Source: an uncultured Actinomycetes bacterium (lineage in GTDB: Bacteria; Actinomycetota; CADDZG01; WHSQ01). From it: 64,000 bases of DNA. Made by a program: the position numbers and the translations under genes. The DNA lies in contig CALMBW010000027.1 in assembly GCA_937863385.1 (NCBI GenBank), forward strand, positions 1 to 64,000. The letters are read 5' to 3'. The notes beneath the pieces were generated by a model, which was given only the letters and a program-made list of their open reading frames with translations, ran no database searches and had not been told where the DNA came from. Below, one piece after another: positions 15,719 to 27,375 of the stretch; within the stretch, counting starts at the first letter, position 1, and every line of letters starts with the position of its first letter.

Positions 15719-15761
15719 GTGGGCGGTACTGGGATCGAACCAGTGACCCCTGCGTTGTAAG
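15719..15761. repeat. attL: displaced 3' half of tRNA-Val
   Basis: These 43 bases are identical to 27303-27345. They contain the anticodon loop, 3' anticodon stem, variable loop, T arm and acceptor 3' strand of tRNA-Val on the minus strand. No 5' half follows (bases after 15761 diverge), so this is not a working tRNA gene. It marks the far end of the integrated element. Confidence 0.9.
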
Positions 15762-17282: not shown

Positions 17283-17960
17283 ATGAGCAATTTCGAGCGA
17301 CTGACCCTGGCTAGGTGGATGAAGTGGCTAGACAGGATCGATCTTGAGCTTGTCGTCATGCACATGAACCGCAAGGTTTGGCGGGACACGATCGACATGA
17401 TGCGGTCGAACAATCACATCAAGACGACCGGCGCCTTCTTCGCCGATTTCCTGACCCGGCTGTACGTCGATGGCCAGGCCATGAGAGTCAGGCGCCAAGG
17501 CGAGGTGAACACGGGCGTTGTCTCCCTGGCTCGACTAATTGATTCAATTCAAAGCAATCCCCAATTTCTGACCAAGGAAAGGCACATCGGTCTGTATGCC
17601 GAGGTCTACCCCGACGACGAGGTCATGGCTGAAGTCGCCAAATCAGAGTTTGAGGCGGCGTGGGGAGTGGACGCCCCTCACGTCGATCCCGAACGGCTTG
17701 TTGCAGACCTAGACGAGCTCGGCTCTGTCGTTGGGCCCGTTAAGGACTTTGCTGACAAACACGTGGCTCATCTCGATTACACACCTGTTGACGAGATGCC
17801 CACCTTCAACGAACTGAATGCAGCAATTGACGTGTTTGGAACGTTGTTTTCGAAGTACTACTTGGCTCTCACCGGAAGCTCCAAGGGCGTGTCCGCAACA
17901 ATCATCGACGACTGGATGGCACCCTTCCAGGTTGCGTGGTCGCTGCCTCAGCCGAACTGA
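17283..17960 (+). CDS. HEPN/AbiU2-like helical protein
   Basis: The 225-residue all-helical protein starts MSNFERLTLARWMKWLDRID. The pattern of an N-terminal helical bundle followed by VKDFADKHVAHLDYTP resembles AbiU2-type HEPN proteins, in which a basic/acidic residue and a downstream D-K-x-x-A-H form the active site of an RNase or a tRNA-AMPylating partner system. The usual Arg of the R-x4-6-H motif is replaced by Lys-Asp here, so catalytic activity is uncertain. It lies next to the left end of the island and diverges from the unknown gene at 15906-17186. It may be the toxin-like part of an abortive-infection module. Alternative: a non-catalytic helical protein. Confidence 0.5.
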   Translation: MSNFERLTLARWMKWLDRIDLELVVMHMNRKVWRDTIDMMRSNNHIKTTGAFFADFLTRLYVDGQAMRVRRQGEVNTGVVSLARLIDSIQSNPQFLTKERHIGLYAEVYPDDEVMAEVAKSEFEAAWGVDAPHVDPERLVADLDELGSVVGPVKDFADKHVAHLDYTPVDEMPTFNELNAAIDVFGTLFSKYYLALTGSSKGVSATIIDDWMAPFQVAWSLPQPN

Positions 17961-18053: not shown

Positions 18054-18809
18054 CTACTGGGAGCTCGGGTCGTCATGATCCCGGGTTGCAGTGCTCAGAT
18101 GGCCCGATCCCAAGGCCCATGTTTCCTCGAGCAGTCGTTGTGCGTACGCAAAGGCTGGCTGTTTGACCCATTCCGGAGTTACCAGGCGCCACCAGGCGGC
18201 CGCCGCTACCACATACAACGCAGCTAAGGCCGCCACAATGCCGCGCTCAGGGCGCACTAGCTCACTGTCCACGATGACAAGCGAGCCCAGAGCGAAGGCG
18301 GTTACCAAACAGATCCCGATCGCCCATGAACGTAATCCGAGCACGTTGCGCCGATATCCATAGTGACAGTTCTCCTCGAAGACCAGGGGGAAGTGTTCTC
18401 TGTTTCTCGTCGCTCTGCGGAGCTGGTCAGTGGCAGTCTCGTAGATGTTGTCAGCACGATGCGGATCTTGCGCTTCTTCCTCCGCGGTGGGGAACTCCAT
18501 GCCCGTCAACACAGAGAGTCGCTTATGGAGCTCCTCAACGCGAACCGGATTCGAGTTATCTGCATGGCGCAGCAAGATCGTCGTCGGTGCCCCACCCCAT
18601 GATTTCCAGAGTTCGGGCTCCCGCTTCTTTCCCGAATGGCGTCCGATCTGTGAAATCAGCCCCCAGAAGCCGCTCGCAACAACAAGGCCCGCGAGTGATG
18701 ACCACCACTCAGCTCTGGTTATTCCGAGGATCACGGCGGCCGTTGAGATCGGGAGCGCAGCCAACAACGCCGGGTAGAGGCGGGCACGCCGGTTGTACTC
18801 GTCACCCAT
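18054..18809 (-). CDS. Four-TM membrane protein (SLATT/S-4TM-like), end of MBL operon
   Basis: The 251-residue protein has two N-terminal transmembrane hairpin helices (about 12-31 LYPALLAALPISTAAVILG and 36-56) and a cytosolic middle region of about 100 residues with a predicted coiled, charged segment. Two more helices follow (about 166-186 and 192-212). This 2+2 layout with a soluble insert is that of S-4TM/SLATT proteins, which often act as membrane effectors in nucleotide-signalling defence systems. It starts 30 bases after the MBL gene 18840-19910 on the same strand, so it is the third gene of that operon. The family assignment is by layout, not by a catalytic motif. Confidence 0.6.
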   Translation of the reverse strand: MGDEYNRRARLYPALLAALPISTAAVILGITRAEWWSSLAGLVVASGFWGLISQIGRHSGKKREPELWKSWGGAPTTILLRHADNSNPVRVEELHKRLSVLTGMEFPTAEEEAQDPHRADNIYETATDQLRRATRNREHFPLVFEENCHYGYRRNVLGLRSWAIGICLVTAFALGSLVIVDSELVRPERGIVAALAALYVVAAAAWWRLVTPEWVKQPAFAYAQRLLEETWALGSGHLSTATRDHDDPSSQ

Positions 18810-18839: not shown

Positions 18840-19910
18840 CTAATCTTCGTCGAAGTCGGATAGGTAGGGCCGAGGCGTCATGGGGGACCAATTCGGGCGA
18901 GATCGACCTGGGCTCGAGAGCAACATCGATACACCGGCCGTAACGAAAGGCTTCACGCCCCGCCGCCAGGCAGCATTCAGCACGCGCTGAGACGGATGCT
19001 TAGGACTTCCCTTCTTGGCCGCAGAAATGAACGCCTCACGCGCCGAGACTTCTCCCTCTATGACTGGGTCACCCAGCAGGCGAGTCATGATTTTCGGTCC
19101 CACATTCCTCTTGCTTCCGTGATGAGGAAGCTGCGTGAAGGTCGCCCTGTCGAGTCCAAGAGCGTCTCGGACGTCTAGCGCTCGTTCAAGAGCCGGAACC
19201 CCCGCGTCCCCCGTAAACAGCACGGTCTCATCGCCGAGAGCCGCATGGAGAATTACGCTCGAATTGTTTCTGTTCGACACGGCGTCCGAGTCCGGCTCAA
19301 CCAATGCTTCCTGATCCCAGATATCGACAACCCGTTCCTTAATCGTTGTTACCGCGGCCTTGAGTTTCGCTGCCAGCGTCTCAACGGCTGTCATCCCGAA
19401 GTCCTTCGCGAGCTCGGCGTAGTACTCCTGAGACGGTCCTAGAACTCGAAGGGCTCCATCGGCCCAGGTTAATCCCTCGAAGGGCTCGACGATGTTTACT
19501 CCTCGTCGCTTGGCTGCCTTTTCGAGTTCCCACGCCGTCGATAACGCCCGCTTCATTGACTCGCTGAATGTTCTCTTCGAGGATCCCTTAAGGACGTAGC
19601 TGTAGACCTCGCTCTCGTACTGCCAAGGCTGATGCATCCAGAGTTCGCCTACATTCAGATTCTCAACGAGGTGAACGAGGCCAGCAGTGTGATCACCGTC
19701 GGGATGCGTCGAGATCACGAGGTCGATGTCACGGGTGTCGTAAAACTCGTCGAGGAAATCTTCTAGATCCTCACCCGAAGCCGCGAAGCCTCCATCGATA
19801 ACGACAACATTCTGGCTCCGTACGGTGGAGAGATCACCGAACCGCATCGCGATCGCATCGCCGCTCTTCGACTCTTCGCCAACAGCTCTTACATCGACTT
19901 CAAAGCTCAC
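18840..19910 (-). CDS. ComEC/Rec2-type metallo-beta-lactamase-fold hydrolase (MBL-1)
   Basis: The 356-residue soluble protein has metal-ligand motif H-P-D-G-D-H at 69-74. It also has the NRNNSSVIL strand seen in ComEC-type MBL domains, the Asp in LFTGDAG, and the His pair in QLPHHGSKRN. SPKHPSQRV near the C terminus matches the ComEC-family S-x-x-H-P motif. Members of this branch are phosphodiesterases or nucleases, and ComEC degrades one DNA strand during uptake. There are no membrane segments, so it is a free-standing enzyme. The GTG start follows GAAAGGG. It is the middle gene of an MBL-2, MBL-1, 4-TM operon with gaps of 54 and 30 bases. The substrate could be DNA or a signalling nucleotide. 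Confidence 0.8.
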   Translation of the reverse strand: MSFEVDVRAVGEESKSGDAIAMRFGDLSTVRSQNVVVIDGGFAASGEDLEDFLDEFYDTRDIDLVISTHPDGDHTAGLVHLVENLNVGELWMHQPWQYESEVYSYVLKGSSKRTFSESMKRALSTAWELEKAAKRRGVNIVEPFEGLTWADGALRVLGPSQEYYAELAKDFGMTAVETLAAKLKAAVTTIKERVVDIWDQEALVEPDSDAVSNRNNSSVILHAALGDETVLFTGDAGVPALERALDVRDALGLDRATFTQLPHHGSKRNVGPKIMTRLLGDPVIEGEVSAREAFISAAKKGSPKHPSQRVLNAAWRRGVKPFVTAGVSMLLSSPGRSRPNWSPMTPRPYLSDFDED

Positions 19911-19964: not shown

Positions 19965-20897
19965 TCACGCCGCATCGTGCAGGGCCACTAGGAGGCTCCC
20001 GCTGGCGTCGAACAACTGAACATTGCCCGAGTCATGCATCCTGATCGTTACGGTGCCGACCTCGCGCGTCGAGTAAACGTGACGCGTGTGCTTTCGGTAG
20101 AAAGGCAGCCCGTCTTCTTTTTCAGGGATGTTTGCCGCACTTGCGATCACGATCTCAGGGCGGATGCTCGCCATGGCTCGTTCCGAGTATCCAGTCTTCC
20201 GTCCGTGATGCGACGCGACCAAGACGTTGGCGCGGAGATTGATGCCGCGATCCAGCATGTCGTCCCATCCCGGACCTTCCACGTCGCCCGGGATGAGAAT
20301 CGAACTGGTGGCGTGCCGCACGCGCATCACGTATGAAGCGTCGTTGTAGATGTCCTTGTCGTCAGCGTCATCGACAAGCCTCGCGGTCGGACCGAGAATC
20401 TCGATGTTGTCGTCGGTCCAGAATTGACCAGTCGCCTGTGCGAGCGGATGGATCAGTTTCGTCGTCGCGGTTCCGCCGGCCTCTCGGAACGCCTGATAGG
20501 CGAGCCAGTCTTGTCGTGCACCCTCGGTTCTAAACGAATAGTTGCGGCCACGGCGGCGCAGGTGGGGCAGATCCCAGAAATTCGACGGCCGCAACTCCCC
20601 ATCCCGCAAAATGCGGCGGATGCCGGACATGTGATCTGCGTCGGGGTGACTAAGGATGAATCGCCAAAGGTCCGAGCCGAATCGATCCTGGACCCATATG
20701 ACCGGGTCGACCAAGTCAGCCGCGAGGTGACGGGTTCCAAAATAGATCTCGGCCAACGATCTCTTCTCGTAACTCCGAAGCTCGCCCCCGTCGTTCACAT
20801 CGATCATCGAGACCCGACCGCTCGGCGACTCGATCACGGTGCACGAGCCAGCCCCCACGTTCAAAATGTGCACGTCCGTATAGCTCGTCTGGTACAT
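19965..20897 (-). CDS. ComEC/Rec2-type metallo-beta-lactamase-fold hydrolase (MBL-2)
   Basis: The 310-residue soluble protein has H-P-D-A-D-H at 84-89, a central NDASYVMRV strand, LIPGDVEG (Asp ligand) and VASHHGRKTGY (His ligands). Its N terminus VHILNVGAGSCTVIES is the standard first strand of ComEC-like MBL proteins (usually G-x-G-D-S/A). It is distantly similar to MBL-1 but not a recent duplicate. It lacks the C-terminal S-x-x-H-P motif in usual form, although YRKHTRHVYST may replace it. ATG 20897 follows AGGAGG, a strong site. It is the first gene of the operon and diverges from the XRE regulator with a tandem repeat between them. Confidence 0.8.
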   Translation of the reverse strand: MYQTSYTDVHILNVGAGSCTVIESPSGRVSMIDVNDGGELRSYEKRSLAEIYFGTRHLAADLVDPVIWVQDRFGSDLWRFILSHPDADHMSGIRRILRDGELRPSNFWDLPHLRRRGRNYSFRTEGARQDWLAYQAFREAGGTATTKLIHPLAQATGQFWTDDNIEILGPTARLVDDADDKDIYNDASYVMRVRHATSSILIPGDVEGPGWDDMLDRGINLRANVLVASHHGRKTGYSERAMASIRPEIVIASAANIPEKEDGLPFYRKHTRHVYSTREVGTVTIRMHDSGNVQLFDASGSLLVALHDAA

Positions 20898-20927
20898 CCC
20901 GCACTTCCTCCTCGATCGAGCTGCTTC

Positions 20928-20981
20928 ACTCGTCGAGCCGGTCCGCCTGGTTTTACTCGTCGAGCTGGCTCGCTTGGTTCG
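20928..20981. repeat. Two tandem 27-bp repeats, candidate operator
   Basis: Units at 20928-20954 and 20955-20981 begin ACTCGTCGAGC and share about 22 of 27 bases. They lie between the divergent MBL operon (start 20897) and the XRE gene (start 21053), where a repressor would control both sides. I infer binding by the adjacent XRE protein. Confidence 0.55.
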
Positions 20982-21052
20982 ATTCTAGACGGGATGTCAA
21001 CCCATCGCACGTCTTCTCCCCGGTTCGTCAGTCTGATTGACTGTCAGTATCG

Positions 21053-21457
21053 TTGACGCGCGAACTCCTAACTGTCAAGATCGTCGTTGTGGACCATCTC
21101 TACATTGAGCTGGGGCGTCGCCTTAGGGAGGCCCGCAAGAATCAGGACCTCACGCAAGCGGCGCTCGCGGAGCGGGTTGGCGTAAGCCGCACCTCAATCA
21201 CCAACGTTGAACAGGGGAACCAACATGTGCCCATACATGTCCTCTACCAAATGGCTCGCGCTCTCGGAGTGCCAGCCTCATCGCTTCTTCCAGACGAGGC
21301 AACTCTTGACCGAGCAGACGAACCCGACCACGAGATGATTAGACGCCTCAAGCCGAAGGAACGAAAACAAGTGGCCGCGTTACTGCAGCAAATCCCTGAC
21401 GATCAGCGCAAGTGGGTATACCGAGTCATCGAAGGAGGTAGGACCGATGGCAACTAA
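21053..21457 (+). CDS. XRE-family transcriptional regulator (ImmR-like)
   Basis: The 134-residue protein has a helix-turn-helix domain at about 18-75: LGRRLREARKNQDLTQAALAERVGVSRTSITNVEQG, with the classic Q-AAL-A-GVS-S-N-E pattern (shown here only as landmarks). The C-terminal part is helical and charged. TTG 21053 is the longest start; GTG at 21089 is an alternative that begins VDHLYIELG. Its last codons overlap the ImmA gene by 11 bases, so the two are coupled. In ICEBs1 and related elements such a pair forms a repressor that is cleaved by the metalloprotease on damage or cell signals. Confidence 0.85.
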   Translation: MTRELLTVKIVVVDHLYIELGRRLREARKNQDLTQAALAERVGVSRTSITNVEQGNQHVPIHVLYQMARALGVPASSLLPDEATLDRADEPDHEMIRRLKPKERKQVAALLQQIPDDQRKWVYRVIEGGRTDGN

Positions 21458-21980
21458 CCCCAAGCTCGAAGCAAGAGCCGAAACGCTTCTTACCGACGAA
21501 GGTGTCCTACGCGATCCCGTCCCCGTTGAAAGTCTGGCTCGACGATTAGGGGCTGAACTTTCCTTTCAGCCCTTCGATAAAGATATGTCTGGGATGCTCT
21601 ATCGCGATGGACAACGCGTCGTCATTGGTGTGAATTCAAGCCATGCAAAAACGCGACAGCGGTTCAGCATCGCTCACGAGATAGGGCATCTTCTTCTTCA
21701 CAAGGGTCGACCGATGTTCATCGACAGAGATGGAAGGTTGAATCGGAGGGATGAGGTTTCGACGCTTGGAACTGACACTGAGGAAATCGAAGCGAATAGC
21801 TTTGCTGCTGCTCTCCTGATGCCTCGCCCCCTCTTGGCCGAGGCAGTTGGTCGGCTTCATCGAAAGGGCCAACCAGCTAGTCCAGAGGTCTTGGCAAAGC
21901 GGTTCGAAGTGAGCGTCCAAGCAATGGAGTACCGACTCATCAACCTGGGCTTACTCTCACCGGACTGGGATTCGTCCTAA
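21447..21980 (+). CDS. ImmA/IrrE-type metallopeptidase
   Basis: The 177-residue protein has the zinc motif HEIGH (His77, Glu78, His81) followed by LLLHKG. It also has the family NSFAAALLMPRPLLAEAV segment, in which the third ligand Glu precedes N-x-F-A-x-x-L-L-M-P. The start at 21447 has a strong GGAGG and overlaps the XRE gene. ImmA cleaves its cognate XRE repressor; IrrE does this in the radiation response. Here it probably inactivates the neighbouring XRE protein and so controls the MBL operon or element excision. Confidence 0.88.
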   Translation: MATNPKLEARAETLLTDEGVLRDPVPVESLARRLGAELSFQPFDKDMSGMLYRDGQRVVIGVNSSHAKTRQRFSIAHEIGHLLLHKGRPMFIDRDGRLNRRDEVSTLGTDTEEIEANSFAAALLMPRPLLAEAVGRLHRKGQPASPEVLAKRFEVSVQAMEYRLINLGLLSPDWDSS

Positions 21981-22872: not shown

Positions 22873-23751
22873 CTACTCGGTGCGCTCCTCGAGCTCCACG
22901 ATGGCGTCGTTTAACAGGTCAACCTGTGAGAGGCGTTCCTTGATGAGGGGTATGTATGTCGGCTCAACCTCGTAGGTAAACGACGATCGGCGACCTTGAA
23001 GCGCAGCCAGGGCTGTGGTCCCCGTTCCGCCAAATGGATCGACAACAACGTCCCCGACAAACGAAAACATGCGTATCAGTCGCGAGGCGAGCTCGAGCGG
23101 GAATGGAGCGGGGTGATCCTTAAGAGAAGCGCCTCGGATGTCATCCCAGATTGAACGGAACATCTGGACATAGTCATCCGTGGGAATGAAGCTCTGCTCT
23201 TCCATTTCGCCCGAAGGAGACCGATAACCTGGCTTACGCAAGAAAACGATGTGCTCGATGTCGTTCTTGACGATCCCGTTAGGAAGATTGGGCTTTCCCA
23301 GATAGCGACTGGATTTCGACGCTTCGAGTTTGATGTTGGCGACCTTGTACCAAATGATTCCCTGCAGATGGTCGAAACCGATTCGCCGACCGCGCACTCT
23401 GATATCGCCTGCAAGGGGAAGTACATGATGGCGACCGCCCTTTGACCGAGCGACGTTGACGTCGCCGACGACGCAGCAGACGCGACCGCCGGGTACGAGA
23501 ATCCTCATGCACTCGCTCCACACACGGTCGAGTTGATCCAGGAAATGCTCGTAGTTGTCGATGTCGCCAAGCTGATCGGGATTACCCGGCGCGTACTCCT
23601 TCAAATTCGCGTAGGGCGGAGAAGTGACAACCAGATGCGCGGACTCATCCGGAATCTCAGGCATAGCCCGACTGTCGCCCAGGATGATCCTGTGGACCGT
23701 GGGCCCGGTCTGTAGCTGCTCTCTCGGATTCTTAGCTGGTTTAGGCGGCAA
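22873..23751 (-). CDS. Site-specific DNA methyltransferase (beta-type amino-MTase)
   Basis: The 292-residue enzyme has catalytic motif TSPPY at 43-47 and the S-adenosylmethionine-binding motif DPFGGTGTTALAA near the C terminus (about 238-250). The order, with catalytic motif first, is that of beta-class amino-methyltransferases; SPPY is most common in N4-cytosine enzymes but occurs in N6-adenine ones. The middle WYKVANIKLEASKSSRYLGKP region is probably target recognition. TTG 23751 follows AGGAG. It is paired with the PaeR7I-like nuclease and protects the host from it. PaeR7I's own methylase is an N6-adenine enzyme, so this pairing may be atypical. Confidence 0.88.
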   Translation of the reverse strand: MPPKPAKNPREQLQTGPTVHRIILGDSRAMPEIPDESAHLVVTSPPYANLKEYAPGNPDQLGDIDNYEHFLDQLDRVWSECMRILVPGGRVCCVVGDVNVARSKGGRHHVLPLAGDIRVRGRRIGFDHLQGIIWYKVANIKLEASKSSRYLGKPNLPNGIVKNDIEHIVFLRKPGYRSPSGEMEEQSFIPTDDYVQMFRSIWDDIRGASLKDHPAPFPLELASRLIRMFSFVGDVVVDPFGGTGTTALAALQGRRSSFTYEVEPTYIPLIKERLSQVDLLNDAIVELEERTE

Positions 23752-23778: not shown

Positions 23779-23800
23779 CATTCAAGTCACCCTAGCTGGG
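23779..23800. repeat. Direct repeat copy 1 upstream of the methyltransferase gene
   Basis: The 22 bases match 23827-23848 at 20 positions (CATTCAAGTCACC, then CT or TG, then AGCTGGG), 48 bases apart. This copy lies about 30 bases upstream of the methyltransferase start, where a controller-type operator would be. It may instead be a duplication left by insertion or deletion. Confidence 0.55.
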
Positions 23801-23826
23801 TGGTGCGACAGAACTGTGGCTTTGAT

Positions 23827-23848
23827 CATTCAAGTCACCTGAGCTGGG
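23827..23848. repeat. Direct repeat copy 2 at the end of the nuclease-like gene
   Basis: This is the second copy of the 22-base repeat. It spans the last four codons and the stop of the gene at 23835-24671, so the stop region itself is duplicated in front of the methyltransferase gene. Confidence 0.55.
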
Positions 23849-26134: not shown

Positions 26135-27364
26135 ATGGCATCGATCAGGCAATGGCACAACGGGTATCAGGTCCGGTGGCGAGACCCCGCCGGCCGCCAG
26201 CGGTCGAAGACATTCAAGCGCAAGACCGATGCGAAGCAGTTCTCGAACCGCGTGGAGGTCGAGATGCAGCGCGGCACCTACGTCGACCCGCAGCTTGGCA
26301 AGTTGCTCTTCGCCGATTGGGCGAACGAATGGCTCCAGTCGAAGATCAACCTGCGTGCTTCGTCGTGGACCCGCGACGAGAGCTACCTGCGAAACCACGT
26401 CATGCCAGCCTTCGGCAACATCGCTCTCGCCAAGATCGACAAGCTCCTCGTCCAGTCGTGGGTCCGAGACCTGGTAACCAAGGGCCTCCATCCCAGCACC
26501 ATCAAGGAGTGCTATCGGATCCTTCGCGGCGTCCTGAACGAGGCCGCCGATGCGCGGCTGATCGTCGAGTCGCCCTGTAGGAAAGTCACGCTCCCCCGCG
26601 TCCCGAAGACGGAACAGCGTTACCTGACGGCCGCACAGGTGGAGCAGCTCGTCGATGCGACCGATCCACAGTTCCGAGTCCTGGTTATGAGTGGGGCCTA
26701 CCTTGGGGCCCGTTGGGGCGAGCTCGTCGGGCTCAAGCGCCAGCACCTGAACCTTCTGAAGCGTGAGGTGCGAATCGTGGGGACGCTCGAGGAGGTTCCT
26801 GGGGGCGTCAGGTACGTCGAGGAGACCAAGACCAGCGCCAGTCGTCGGACTCTCGACATCCCGGCCTTCCTCGTCGATCTCCTGGCCGCTCACCTCAAGG
26901 ACGCGCCCGAGTCGGAGTTCGTGTTCTCCACGAAGGACGGCAGCGCGATCCGGCGATCCAACTTCCGTCAGCGCGTGTGGAAGCCGGCAGTCAAGAAATC
27001 CGGGATCGATCCGGACTTTCGGTTCCACGACCTGCGGCACACGTGCGCGTCGCTCCTGATCGAGCAAGGAGCGCATCCGAAGGAGATACAGGCTCGGCTC
27101 GGCCACTCGACGATCACAACGACCCTCGACCGTTACGGCCACCTAATGCCGGGACTCGGCCGCCAACTCGCCGCGAATCTCGACGAGATGCGCGCCAGAG
27201 CGCGTTCTGATGTGGACCAGATGTGGACCAGCGGGGATGCGGAGGTCATCGCGTTCCCGGAGCCGGAAGACGGAAACGCCGATCTACCTACGGAAACGGA
27301 AAGTGGGCGGTACTGGGATCGAACCAGTGACCCCTGCGTTGTAAGCGCAGTGCTCTCCCGCTGA
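26135..27364 (+). CDS. int: Tyrosine recombinase (integrase)
   Basis: The 409-residue enzyme has an N-terminal SAM-like core-binding domain (about 55-165) and a catalytic domain (about 165-345). Catalytic residues: Arg191 in GARWGELVGL, the H-x-x-R box in HDLRHTCASLL (about 297), His in LGHSTITTTLD and the nucleophile Tyr in DRYGH (about 332). The first 20 residues (MASIRQWHNGYQVRWRD) form the arm-binding beta-sheet domain seen in many actinobacterial integrases. The last about 20 codons lie inside the tRNA-Val gene, so the C terminus depends on the attachment site. Integrase next to the att site is the usual layout. Confidence 0.92.
   Translation: MASIRQWHNGYQVRWRDPAGRQRSKTFKRKTDAKQFSNRVEVEMQRGTYVDPQLGKLLFADWANEWLQSKINLRASSWTRDESYLRNHVMPAFGNIALAKIDKLLVQSWVRDLVTKGLHPSTIKECYRILRGVLNEAADARLIVESPCRKVTLPRVPKTEQRYLTAAQVEQLVDATDPQFRVLVMSGAYLGARWGELVGLKRQHLNLLKREVRIVGTLEEVPGGVRYVEETKTSASRRTLDIPAFLVDLLAAHLKDAPESEFVFSTKDGSAIRRSNFRQRVWKPAVKKSGIDPDFRFHDLRHTCASLLIEQGAHPKEIQARLGHSTITTTLDRYGHLMPGLGRQLAANLDEMRARARSDVDQMWTSGDAEVIAFPEPEDGNADLPTETESGRYWDRTSDPCVVSAVLSR
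27211..27229. repeat. Putative integrase arm-type site (right)
   Basis: Two TGTGGACC copies at 27211 and 27222, 11 bases apart, match the pair at 15870 and 15881 in the same orientation. They lie 74 bases inside the right att repeat but also within the integrase coding region, so they serve both as codons and as a possible binding site. Confidence 0.5.
27303..27345. repeat. attR: 3' half of the intact tRNA-Val
   Basis: This is the right copy of the 43-bp direct repeat. It belongs to the complete tRNA gene and ends in its anticodon loop. Recombination with 15719-15761 would excise the island and leave the tRNA 3' half intact. Confidence 0.9.
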
Positions 27365-27375
27365 GCTAACCGCCC
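27304..27375 (-). tRNA. tRNA-Val(UAC)
   Basis: A 72-base cloverleaf can be drawn: acceptor GGGCGGT/ACCGCCC with discriminator A, D arm GCTC/GAGC, anticodon stem CTGCG/CGCAG with loop CTTACAA (anticodon UAC), and T arm ACTGG/CCAGT with loop TTCGATC. The CCA end is not encoded. It is the target of the genomic island, which left the gene complete. Confidence 0.95.

What the first reader, a model, noticed from the sequence alone, without database searches (positions are those of the whole stretch)
20928..21980. XRE/ImmA switch with a tandem 27-bp repeat between it and the MBL operon
Two 27-bp tandem units (20928-20981) lie in the divergent promoter region. The XRE gene overlaps the ImmA gene. In ICEBs1 ImmA cleaves ImmR to turn on the element. 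Here the switch faces the MBL operon, so DNA damage or infection could derepress it.
Basis: partly seen in the sequence, partly recalled or inferred. Interest (0 to 1): 0.65.

Follow-up and report, generated by a model that had tools for sequence, protein, structure and literature searches.

The report
Protease-controlled switch for MBL defence genes
A small mobile island carries a repressor and protease pair of the type that bacteria use to turn on anti-virus genes after DNA damage; here it faces a little-studied set of metallo-hydrolase genes, and its likely DNA switch is a pair of GTCA-N7-TGAC sites, not the 27-base repeat that drew attention.

Summary
A 27-bp unit occurs twice in tandem (20928-20981, 21/27 identical) in the 191-bp gap between divergent MBL genes and an XRE gene whose end overlaps an ImmA/IrrE (M78) protease gene by 11 bp.

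By profile, fold and neighbours of relatives, the pair belongs with CapH/CapP-type (ImmR/ImmA-like) switches: near relatives stand beside CBASS and Bub-like operons. A switch facing an MBL operon is therefore credible. Two other M78-protease loci, one with an XRE partner, also face this MBL + membrane-protein operon.

The 27-bp repeat is probably not the operator. Beside it lie two 15-bp palindromes, GTCA-N7-TGAC (21027-21041, 21043-21057). This motif is the top palindrome upstream of 82 related capH genes (15 loci; best of any motif in shuffled sets 8), and the doublet is unique in this 2.77-Mb genome. The 27-bp repeat was found in none of the related loci and forms no significant RNA structure.

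Induction by DNA damage is inferred. This protease is a short 177-aa form, about 100 residues shorter than solved CapP, and I expect it lacks the C-terminal sensor domain. New member of a known kind of switch, with an uncharacterised target operon.

The parts
21089..21457 (+). XRE-family repressor (CapH/ImmR-like), 122 aa; GTG start chosen by homology
   Evidence: Pfam HTH_31/HTH_3; PADLOC HTH_VI, capH, Control_protein; start aligned with relatives
21447..21980 (+). ImmA/IrrE (M78) metalloprotease, CapP-like short form, 177 aa, HExxH (H77, E78, H81) and E113 invariant
   Evidence: Pfam Peptidase_M78 94 bits; PADLOC capP 118.7 bits over model positions 4-153 of 242; invariant residues in 27 homologues; model matches 7t5t CapP and PprI
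21027..21041 (.). Palindrome GTCAGTCTGATTGAC, proposed operator 1
   Evidence: Motif enriched upstream of related capH genes; doublet unique in own genome
21043..21057 (.). Palindrome GTCAGTATCGTTGAC, proposed operator 2
   Evidence: As operator 1; overlaps both predicted promoters
20928..20954 (.). 27-bp tandem unit 1 (function unassigned)
20955..20981 (.). 27-bp tandem unit 2 (function unassigned)
20911..20920 (.). CTCGATCGAG, third palindrome related to the CTCGTCGAG core of the 27-bp units, next to the MBL1 ribosome-binding site
21049..21078 (-). Tentative promoter for the MBL operon (TTGACA - 18 - AACGAT)
   Evidence: Own script; the consensus scan found none, so weak
21053..21081 (+). 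Tentative promoter for the XRE/ImmA genes (TTGACG - 17 - CAAGAT)
   Evidence: Own script; the consensus scan found none, so weak
19965..20897 (-). MBL1, ComEC-type metallo-hydrolase, 310 aa, first gene of the operon
   Evidence: NCBIfam ComEC_Rec2 and 6A-MBL weak matches; PADLOC PDC-M48B 45 bits; PDB ComEC
18840..19910 (-). MBL2, metallo-hydrolase of the PDC-M48B family, 356 aa
   Evidence: PADLOC PDC-M48B 264 bits over 2-353; Pfam Lactamase_B
18054..18809 (-). Helical membrane-like protein, 251 aa, constant partner of MBL2
   Evidence: Adjacent to MBL2 in Rhodococcus and Curtobacterium plasmids and viral contigs; all-helical model pLDDT 87, no PDB fold match
15719..15761 (.). Left att copy, 43 bp identical to the tRNA-Val 3' half
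27303..27345 (.). Right att copy inside tRNA-Val (27303-27375, -)
26135..27364 (+). Tyrosine integrase of the island
   Evidence: Pfam Phage_integrase 94 bits
22177..22815 (-). XhoI-family restriction endonuclease (context)
   Evidence: Pfam XhoI 69.5 bits
22873..23751 (-). N6/N4 DNA methyltransferase (context)
   Evidence: Pfam N6_N4_Mtase 112 bits

Best explanation
The XRE and M78 genes form a CapH/CapP-type (ImmR/ImmA-like) protease-controlled repressor switch. The XRE dimer binds the two GTCA-N7-TGAC palindromes at 21027-21057 and holds down both its own promoter and the divergent promoter of the three-gene operon MBL1-MBL2-membrane protein. When the protease is activated, most likely by single-stranded DNA or another sign of DNA damage or infection, it cleaves the XRE repressor and the operon is expressed as an inducible defence module. 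The 27-bp tandem repeat lies in the MBL-side half of the gap, probably in the untranslated leader of the MBL mRNA, and is either a local duplication or the site of something other than this repressor. Shown by sequence: gene layout, family assignments, catalytic residues, the motif and its enrichment in relatives. Inferred: binding, repression, cleavage, the inducing signal and anti-phage function.
For: Protease best model capP, 118.7 bits, XRE matches capH at 46 bits; AlphaFold model of the protease has solved CapP 7t5t as top PDB match, then ssDNA-bound PprI 8sln; HExxH and Glu invariant in 27 homologues. Nearest plasmid relatives (43-50% identity) sit beside CBASS genes; the nearest genome relative (L048, 53%) faces a ThiF-containing, Bub-like operon. 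In a search of all 4-base palindromes with spacers 0-15 over 82 upstream regions with the window left out, GTCA-N7-TGAC ranks first (15 loci); the best of any motif in 30 shuffled sets is 8. The second-ranked GTTT-N7-AAAC (14 loci) has the same 15-bp geometry. The doublet occurs once in the 2.77-Mb genome even with 2 mismatches allowed, and 1 of 20000 shuffles of the gap holds two sites. L143 has XRE + M78 divergent from a Cas2-like gene + MBL2 + membrane protein; L118 has an M78 protease divergent from MBL2 + membrane protein. Literature: CapP is activated by ssDNA and cleaves CapH, and CapW or CapH+CapP accompany 219 of 544 Bub operons (PMC13373217).
Against: Only 15 of 82 relatives carry the exact motif, so specificities vary; in more distant viral-contig relatives it is rare (3 of 75). 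No consensus promoter was found in the gap, so promoter overlap is tentative. The protease is 177 aa against 278 residues in the solved CapP chain, with the capP model matched only over positions 4-153 of 242, so the C-terminal sensor part is probably absent and ssDNA sensing may not apply. In L143 and L118 the XRE/M78 genes face the MBL operon but no exact GTCA-N7-TGAC lies in that gap. Most MBL2 loci have no such switch nearby, including a second MBL2 pair in this genome.
Confidence: 0.7

Rival explanations
1. The 27-bp units are the XRE operator: the repressor binds the CTCGTCGAG palindromes and the protease relieves it.
For: The unit is a real repeat in the divergent gap; its 11-bp core is identical in both copies while all 6 differences lie outside it, and a third CTCG-N2-CGAG palindrome lies 18 bp away. 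Three such palindromes occur in none of 5000 shuffles of the gap.
Against: The CTCG-N1-CGAG palindrome is present in only 2 of 82 related capH upstream regions against 15 for GTCA-N7-TGAC. The spaced 27-bp pattern is absent from every other fetched locus and the unit from IMG/VR. It lies well away from the XRE start and does not overlap the tentative promoters.
Confidence: 0.12
2. The repeat is a neutral local duplication, or the site of a second, unidentified regulator of the MBL operon, while the palindromes at 21027-21057 serve the XRE protein.
For: Repeat not shared with relatives; no significant RNA structure in the leader (z = -0.14); the core is conserved between copies.
Against: No candidate second regulator was identified. 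No close relative of the island was found, so turnover of the repeat could not be followed.
Confidence: 0.6
3. The XRE/ImmA pair is the excision switch of the island, as ImmR/ImmA is in ICEBs1.
For: The pair lies inside an integrated island of 11.6 kb with a 43-bp att duplication at tRNA-Val and an integrase.
Against: The only exact operator copies in the island are the two at 21027-21057; one-mismatch copies lie inside genes, none near int/xis at 25.5-27.4 kb. No conjugation gene was recognised.
Confidence: 0.1
4. The XRE protein is the controller of the neighbouring XhoI-type restriction-modification genes.
For: PADLOC Control_protein matches for the XRE gene (42.7 bits); restriction-modification genes lie immediately beyond the protease gene; L143 also has restriction-modification genes next to its XRE/M78 pair.
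Against: The R-M genes are convergent to the pair, with their own start near 23751; no exact operator copy lies there. Control proteins do not come with an M78 protease.
Confidence: 0.08

Closest known systems
CapH + CapP of CBASS and Bub operons (Thauera CapP 7t5t)
   Same: HTH repressor + M78 protease, overlapping or adjacent genes, beside an immune-type operon; protease fold; palindromic operator shared with relatives beside CBASS and Bub-like genes
   Different: Protease is 177 aa, about 100 residues shorter than the solved CapP chain; the operon encodes metallo-hydrolases and a membrane protein, with no CD-NTase or ThiF gene recognised
ImmR/ImmA of ICEBs1
   Same: Short ImmA-type protease paired with an XRE repressor on an integrated element (ICEBs1 features from general knowledge and PMC10233336)
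   Different: No recognised conjugation genes; operator copies lie only at the MBL operon, not at int/xis
IrrE(PprI)/DdrO of Deinococcus
   Same: M78 protease fold with HExxH (3dte, 8sln matches); repressor cleavage logic
   Different: PprI carries an additional GAF-like domain; DdrO is a genome-wide regulator
PADLOC candidate system PDC-M48 (B component)
   Same: MBL2 matches PDC-M48B over its full length
   Different: The A component was not identified; the membrane-protein partner has no PADLOC match; no paper on this candidate was found in the held library
CapK + CapS immune-operon regulators (PMC13373217)
   Different: Kinase and STAS repressor, not protease; whether those MBL operons resemble this one was not checked

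Membership tests
CapH/CapP switch | HTH repressor gene followed by an M78 protease gene | tested here: met
CapH/CapP switch | Protease active-site HExxH and downstream Glu | tested here: met
   H77, E78, H81, E113 invariant in 27 homologues
CapH/CapP switch | Fold of CapP protease domain | tested here: met
   7t5t top Foldseek hit, E 9.9e-8, probability 1.00, TM-score 0.61 by query length
CapH/CapP switch | C-terminal part beyond the protease domain, as in the solved CapP and PprI chains | tested here: not met
   177 aa against 278 residues in 7t5t; capP model matched 4-153 of 242. That the missing part is the sensor domain is from general knowledge and PMC10904395. Relatives beside CBASS are equally short (172-178 aa).
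CapH/CapP switch | Adjacent immune-type operon | tested here: inconclusive
   MBL2 belongs to a candidate anti-phage family only; anti-phage activity not shown
CapH/CapP switch | Operator shared with CBASS/Bub-linked capH genes | tested here: met
   GTCA-N7-TGAC
CapH/CapP switch | ssDNA-stimulated cleavage of the repressor | not testable with these tools
   Needs biochemistry
ICEBs1-type ImmR/ImmA element switch | Control of excision/conjugation genes | tested here: not met
   No exact operator near int/xis; no conjugation genes recognised
PDC-M48 | B component | tested here: met
   264 bits, near full length
PDC-M48 | A component | tested here: not met
   No PADLOC PDC-M48A match among the ten island proteins scanned
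R-M controller protein | Operator in front of its own R-M genes | tested here: not met
   Exact operator copies only at 21027-21057 within the island

The most novel reading that the evidence does not exclude
A so far undescribed inducible defence module: two ComEC-like metallo-hydrolases and a helical membrane protein with no PDB fold match, kept silent by a short CapP/ImmA-type protease switch, with the protease module exchanged for a sigma-factor-like partner in a related locus (L118).
Probability: 0.3. Interest if true: 0.6.

Novelty: new member of a known kind. Interest (0 to 1): 0.42.

Why it matters
It extends protease-controlled repressor switches from CBASS and Bub-type operons to an MBL + membrane-protein operon that has no studied example in the held literature, and gives a concrete operator (GTCA-N7-TGAC) that can be tested and used to find other genes under such switches.

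Tried and rejected
27-bp unit as operator: not shared with relatives. RNA structure of the MBL leader: folds no better than shuffles. Consensus sigma-70 promoter scan: none found; only weak candidates from a looser script. XhoI-site link: the repeat core CTCGTCGAG contains no CTCGAG; 43 CTCGAG sites are spread over the window. MBL1 in viral contigs by single-sequence query: none. MBL2 profile in 396 genomes of the phylum: only this genome; in 347 genomes of another phylum: 3. Literature search for PDC-M48 and 6A-MBL: no papers in the held library. Fold of the membrane protein: no PDB match below E 0.001. The first operator count (17 of 84) included one wrongly placed region (L063) and the window itself; the cleaned count is 15 of 82. 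Note: L063 also lacks a full upstream region.

Full report
Observation. The 27-bp tandem repeat is real and stands in the 191-bp gap between MBL1 (start 20897, minus strand) and the XRE gene (start GTG 21089, plus strand). The units share 21 of 27 bases, the first 11 being identical, and the tandem score beats every one of 2000 shuffles. The XRE and ImmA genes overlap by 11 bp. The start at 21089 rather than the longer mechanical ORF (TTG 21053) follows from alignment with relatives.

Setting. A 43-bp sequence of the tRNA-Val 3' half is duplicated at 15719-15761 and 27303-27345, and a tyrosine integrase lies just inside the right copy. The 11.6-kb island holds an XhoI-type nuclease and a methyltransferase, the XRE/M78 pair, two MBL genes, a helical membrane-type protein and several unknown genes. 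Its G+C content dips in the middle. MBL1, MBL2 and the membrane-type gene follow each other on one strand with gaps of about 54 and 30 bp, so they are probably one operon; the next gene, 17283-17960, is convergent.

What the pair is. The protease matches PADLOC capP at 118.7 bits and Pfam M78; the XRE matches several HTH models including capH at 46 bits. The AlphaFold model of the protease (mean pLDDT 90) has Thauera CapP as its best PDB match, followed by Deinococcus PprI. Relatives on plasmids stand beside CBASS genes (Streptomyces L045, Pukyongiella L047), and the closest genome relative, L048 at 53% identity, is divergent from an operon with a ThiF protein and small proteins that I read as Bub-like. 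Of 46 divergent neighbours of related pairs, several match CBASS phospholipase effectors, E1-E2 proteins or cyclases.

The operator. Inspection of the Pukyongiella gap showed two GTCA-N7-TGAC palindromes, and the window holds two, 16 bp apart, at 21027-21057. To guard against picking a motif by eye, I counted every 4-base palindrome with spacers 0-15 in 82 upstream regions with the window left out: GTCA-N7-TGAC came first with 15 loci, GTTT-N7-AAAC of the same geometry had 14, and ATGT-N11-ACAT, which extends both, had 14; the best of any motif in 30 shuffled sets was 8. The relatives were not weighted for phylogeny, so a few close pairs count twice. The doublet is unique in the window's genome with up to 2 mismatches. 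The CTCG-N1-CGAG core of the 27-bp unit is in only 2 of the 82 regions.

Promoters. A consensus scan finds none. A looser script finds TTGACA-18-AACGAT for the MBL side and TTGACG-17-CAAGAT for the XRE side, both overlapping palindrome 2. If right, the MBL transcript would start near 21042 and carry the 27-bp units in its leader; this is inference, and that leader folds no better than shuffled sequence.

Is the link to the MBL operon general? MBL2 and the membrane-type protein travel together in Rhodococcus and Curtobacterium plasmids and in viral contigs, mostly without an XRE/M78 pair. Two exceptions are independent of the window: L143, where an XRE + M78 pair is divergent from a Cas2-like gene, MBL2 and the membrane protein, and L118, where an M78 protease with a sigma-70-region-2-like partner is divergent from MBL2 and an adjacent gene in the position of the membrane protein. 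Neither has the 27-bp repeat nor an exact GTCA-N7-TGAC in that gap. The window's own genome has a second MBL2 + membrane pair without a switch.

Limits. No closely related island was found, so the history of the repeat is unknown. The protease is a short form, and the part of CapP and PprI beyond the protease domain is missing here; relatives beside CBASS are equally short. Whether such short forms sense ssDNA is not shown by anything I ran. That CapP is activated by ssDNA and cleaves CapH comes from PMC13373217 and PMC10233336. The anti-phage role of the MBL operon rests on a candidate-family match only.

Verdict. Observation confirmed; interpretation partly supported: right about the switch and what it faces, wrong, most probably, about the repeat as its DNA element.

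Noticed in passing
15719-15761 and 27303-27345: 43-bp exact duplication of the tRNA-Val 3' half marks the ends of an 11.6-kb integrated island.
   Followed up: yes
Own genome contig C18 184140-185138 (L170 6395-8139): A second MBL2 + membrane-protein pair without XRE/ImmA; membrane proteins 61% identical, MBL2 only 36%.
   Followed up: partly
L118 3504-6447: M78 protease (capP 120 bits) with a sigma-70-region-2-like protein in place of an XRE repressor, divergent from MBL2.
   Followed up: partly
L143 2473-7744: XRE + M78 pair divergent from a Cas2-like gene, MBL2 and membrane protein, beside a cytosine methyltransferase gene.
   Followed up: partly
23779-23848: Direct repeat CATTCAAGTCACC (two copies about 46 bp apart) just upstream of the methyltransferase gene.
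   Followed up: no
Upstream regions of related capH genes: A second operator class, GTTT-N7-AAAC, with the same 15-bp geometry as GTCA-N7-TGAC.
   Followed up: no
17283-17960: Weak match to HEPN_AbiU2, below the curated cut-off, in a gene convergent with the MBL operon.
   Followed up: no
L048 and L258 (contig PKZN01000043.1 / G397:C100, both 57990 bases long): What appears to be one Acidimicrobiaceae contig carries both the closest XRE/M78 pair, facing a Bub-like operon, and an MBL2 + membrane-protein pair about 15 kb away.
   Followed up: partly
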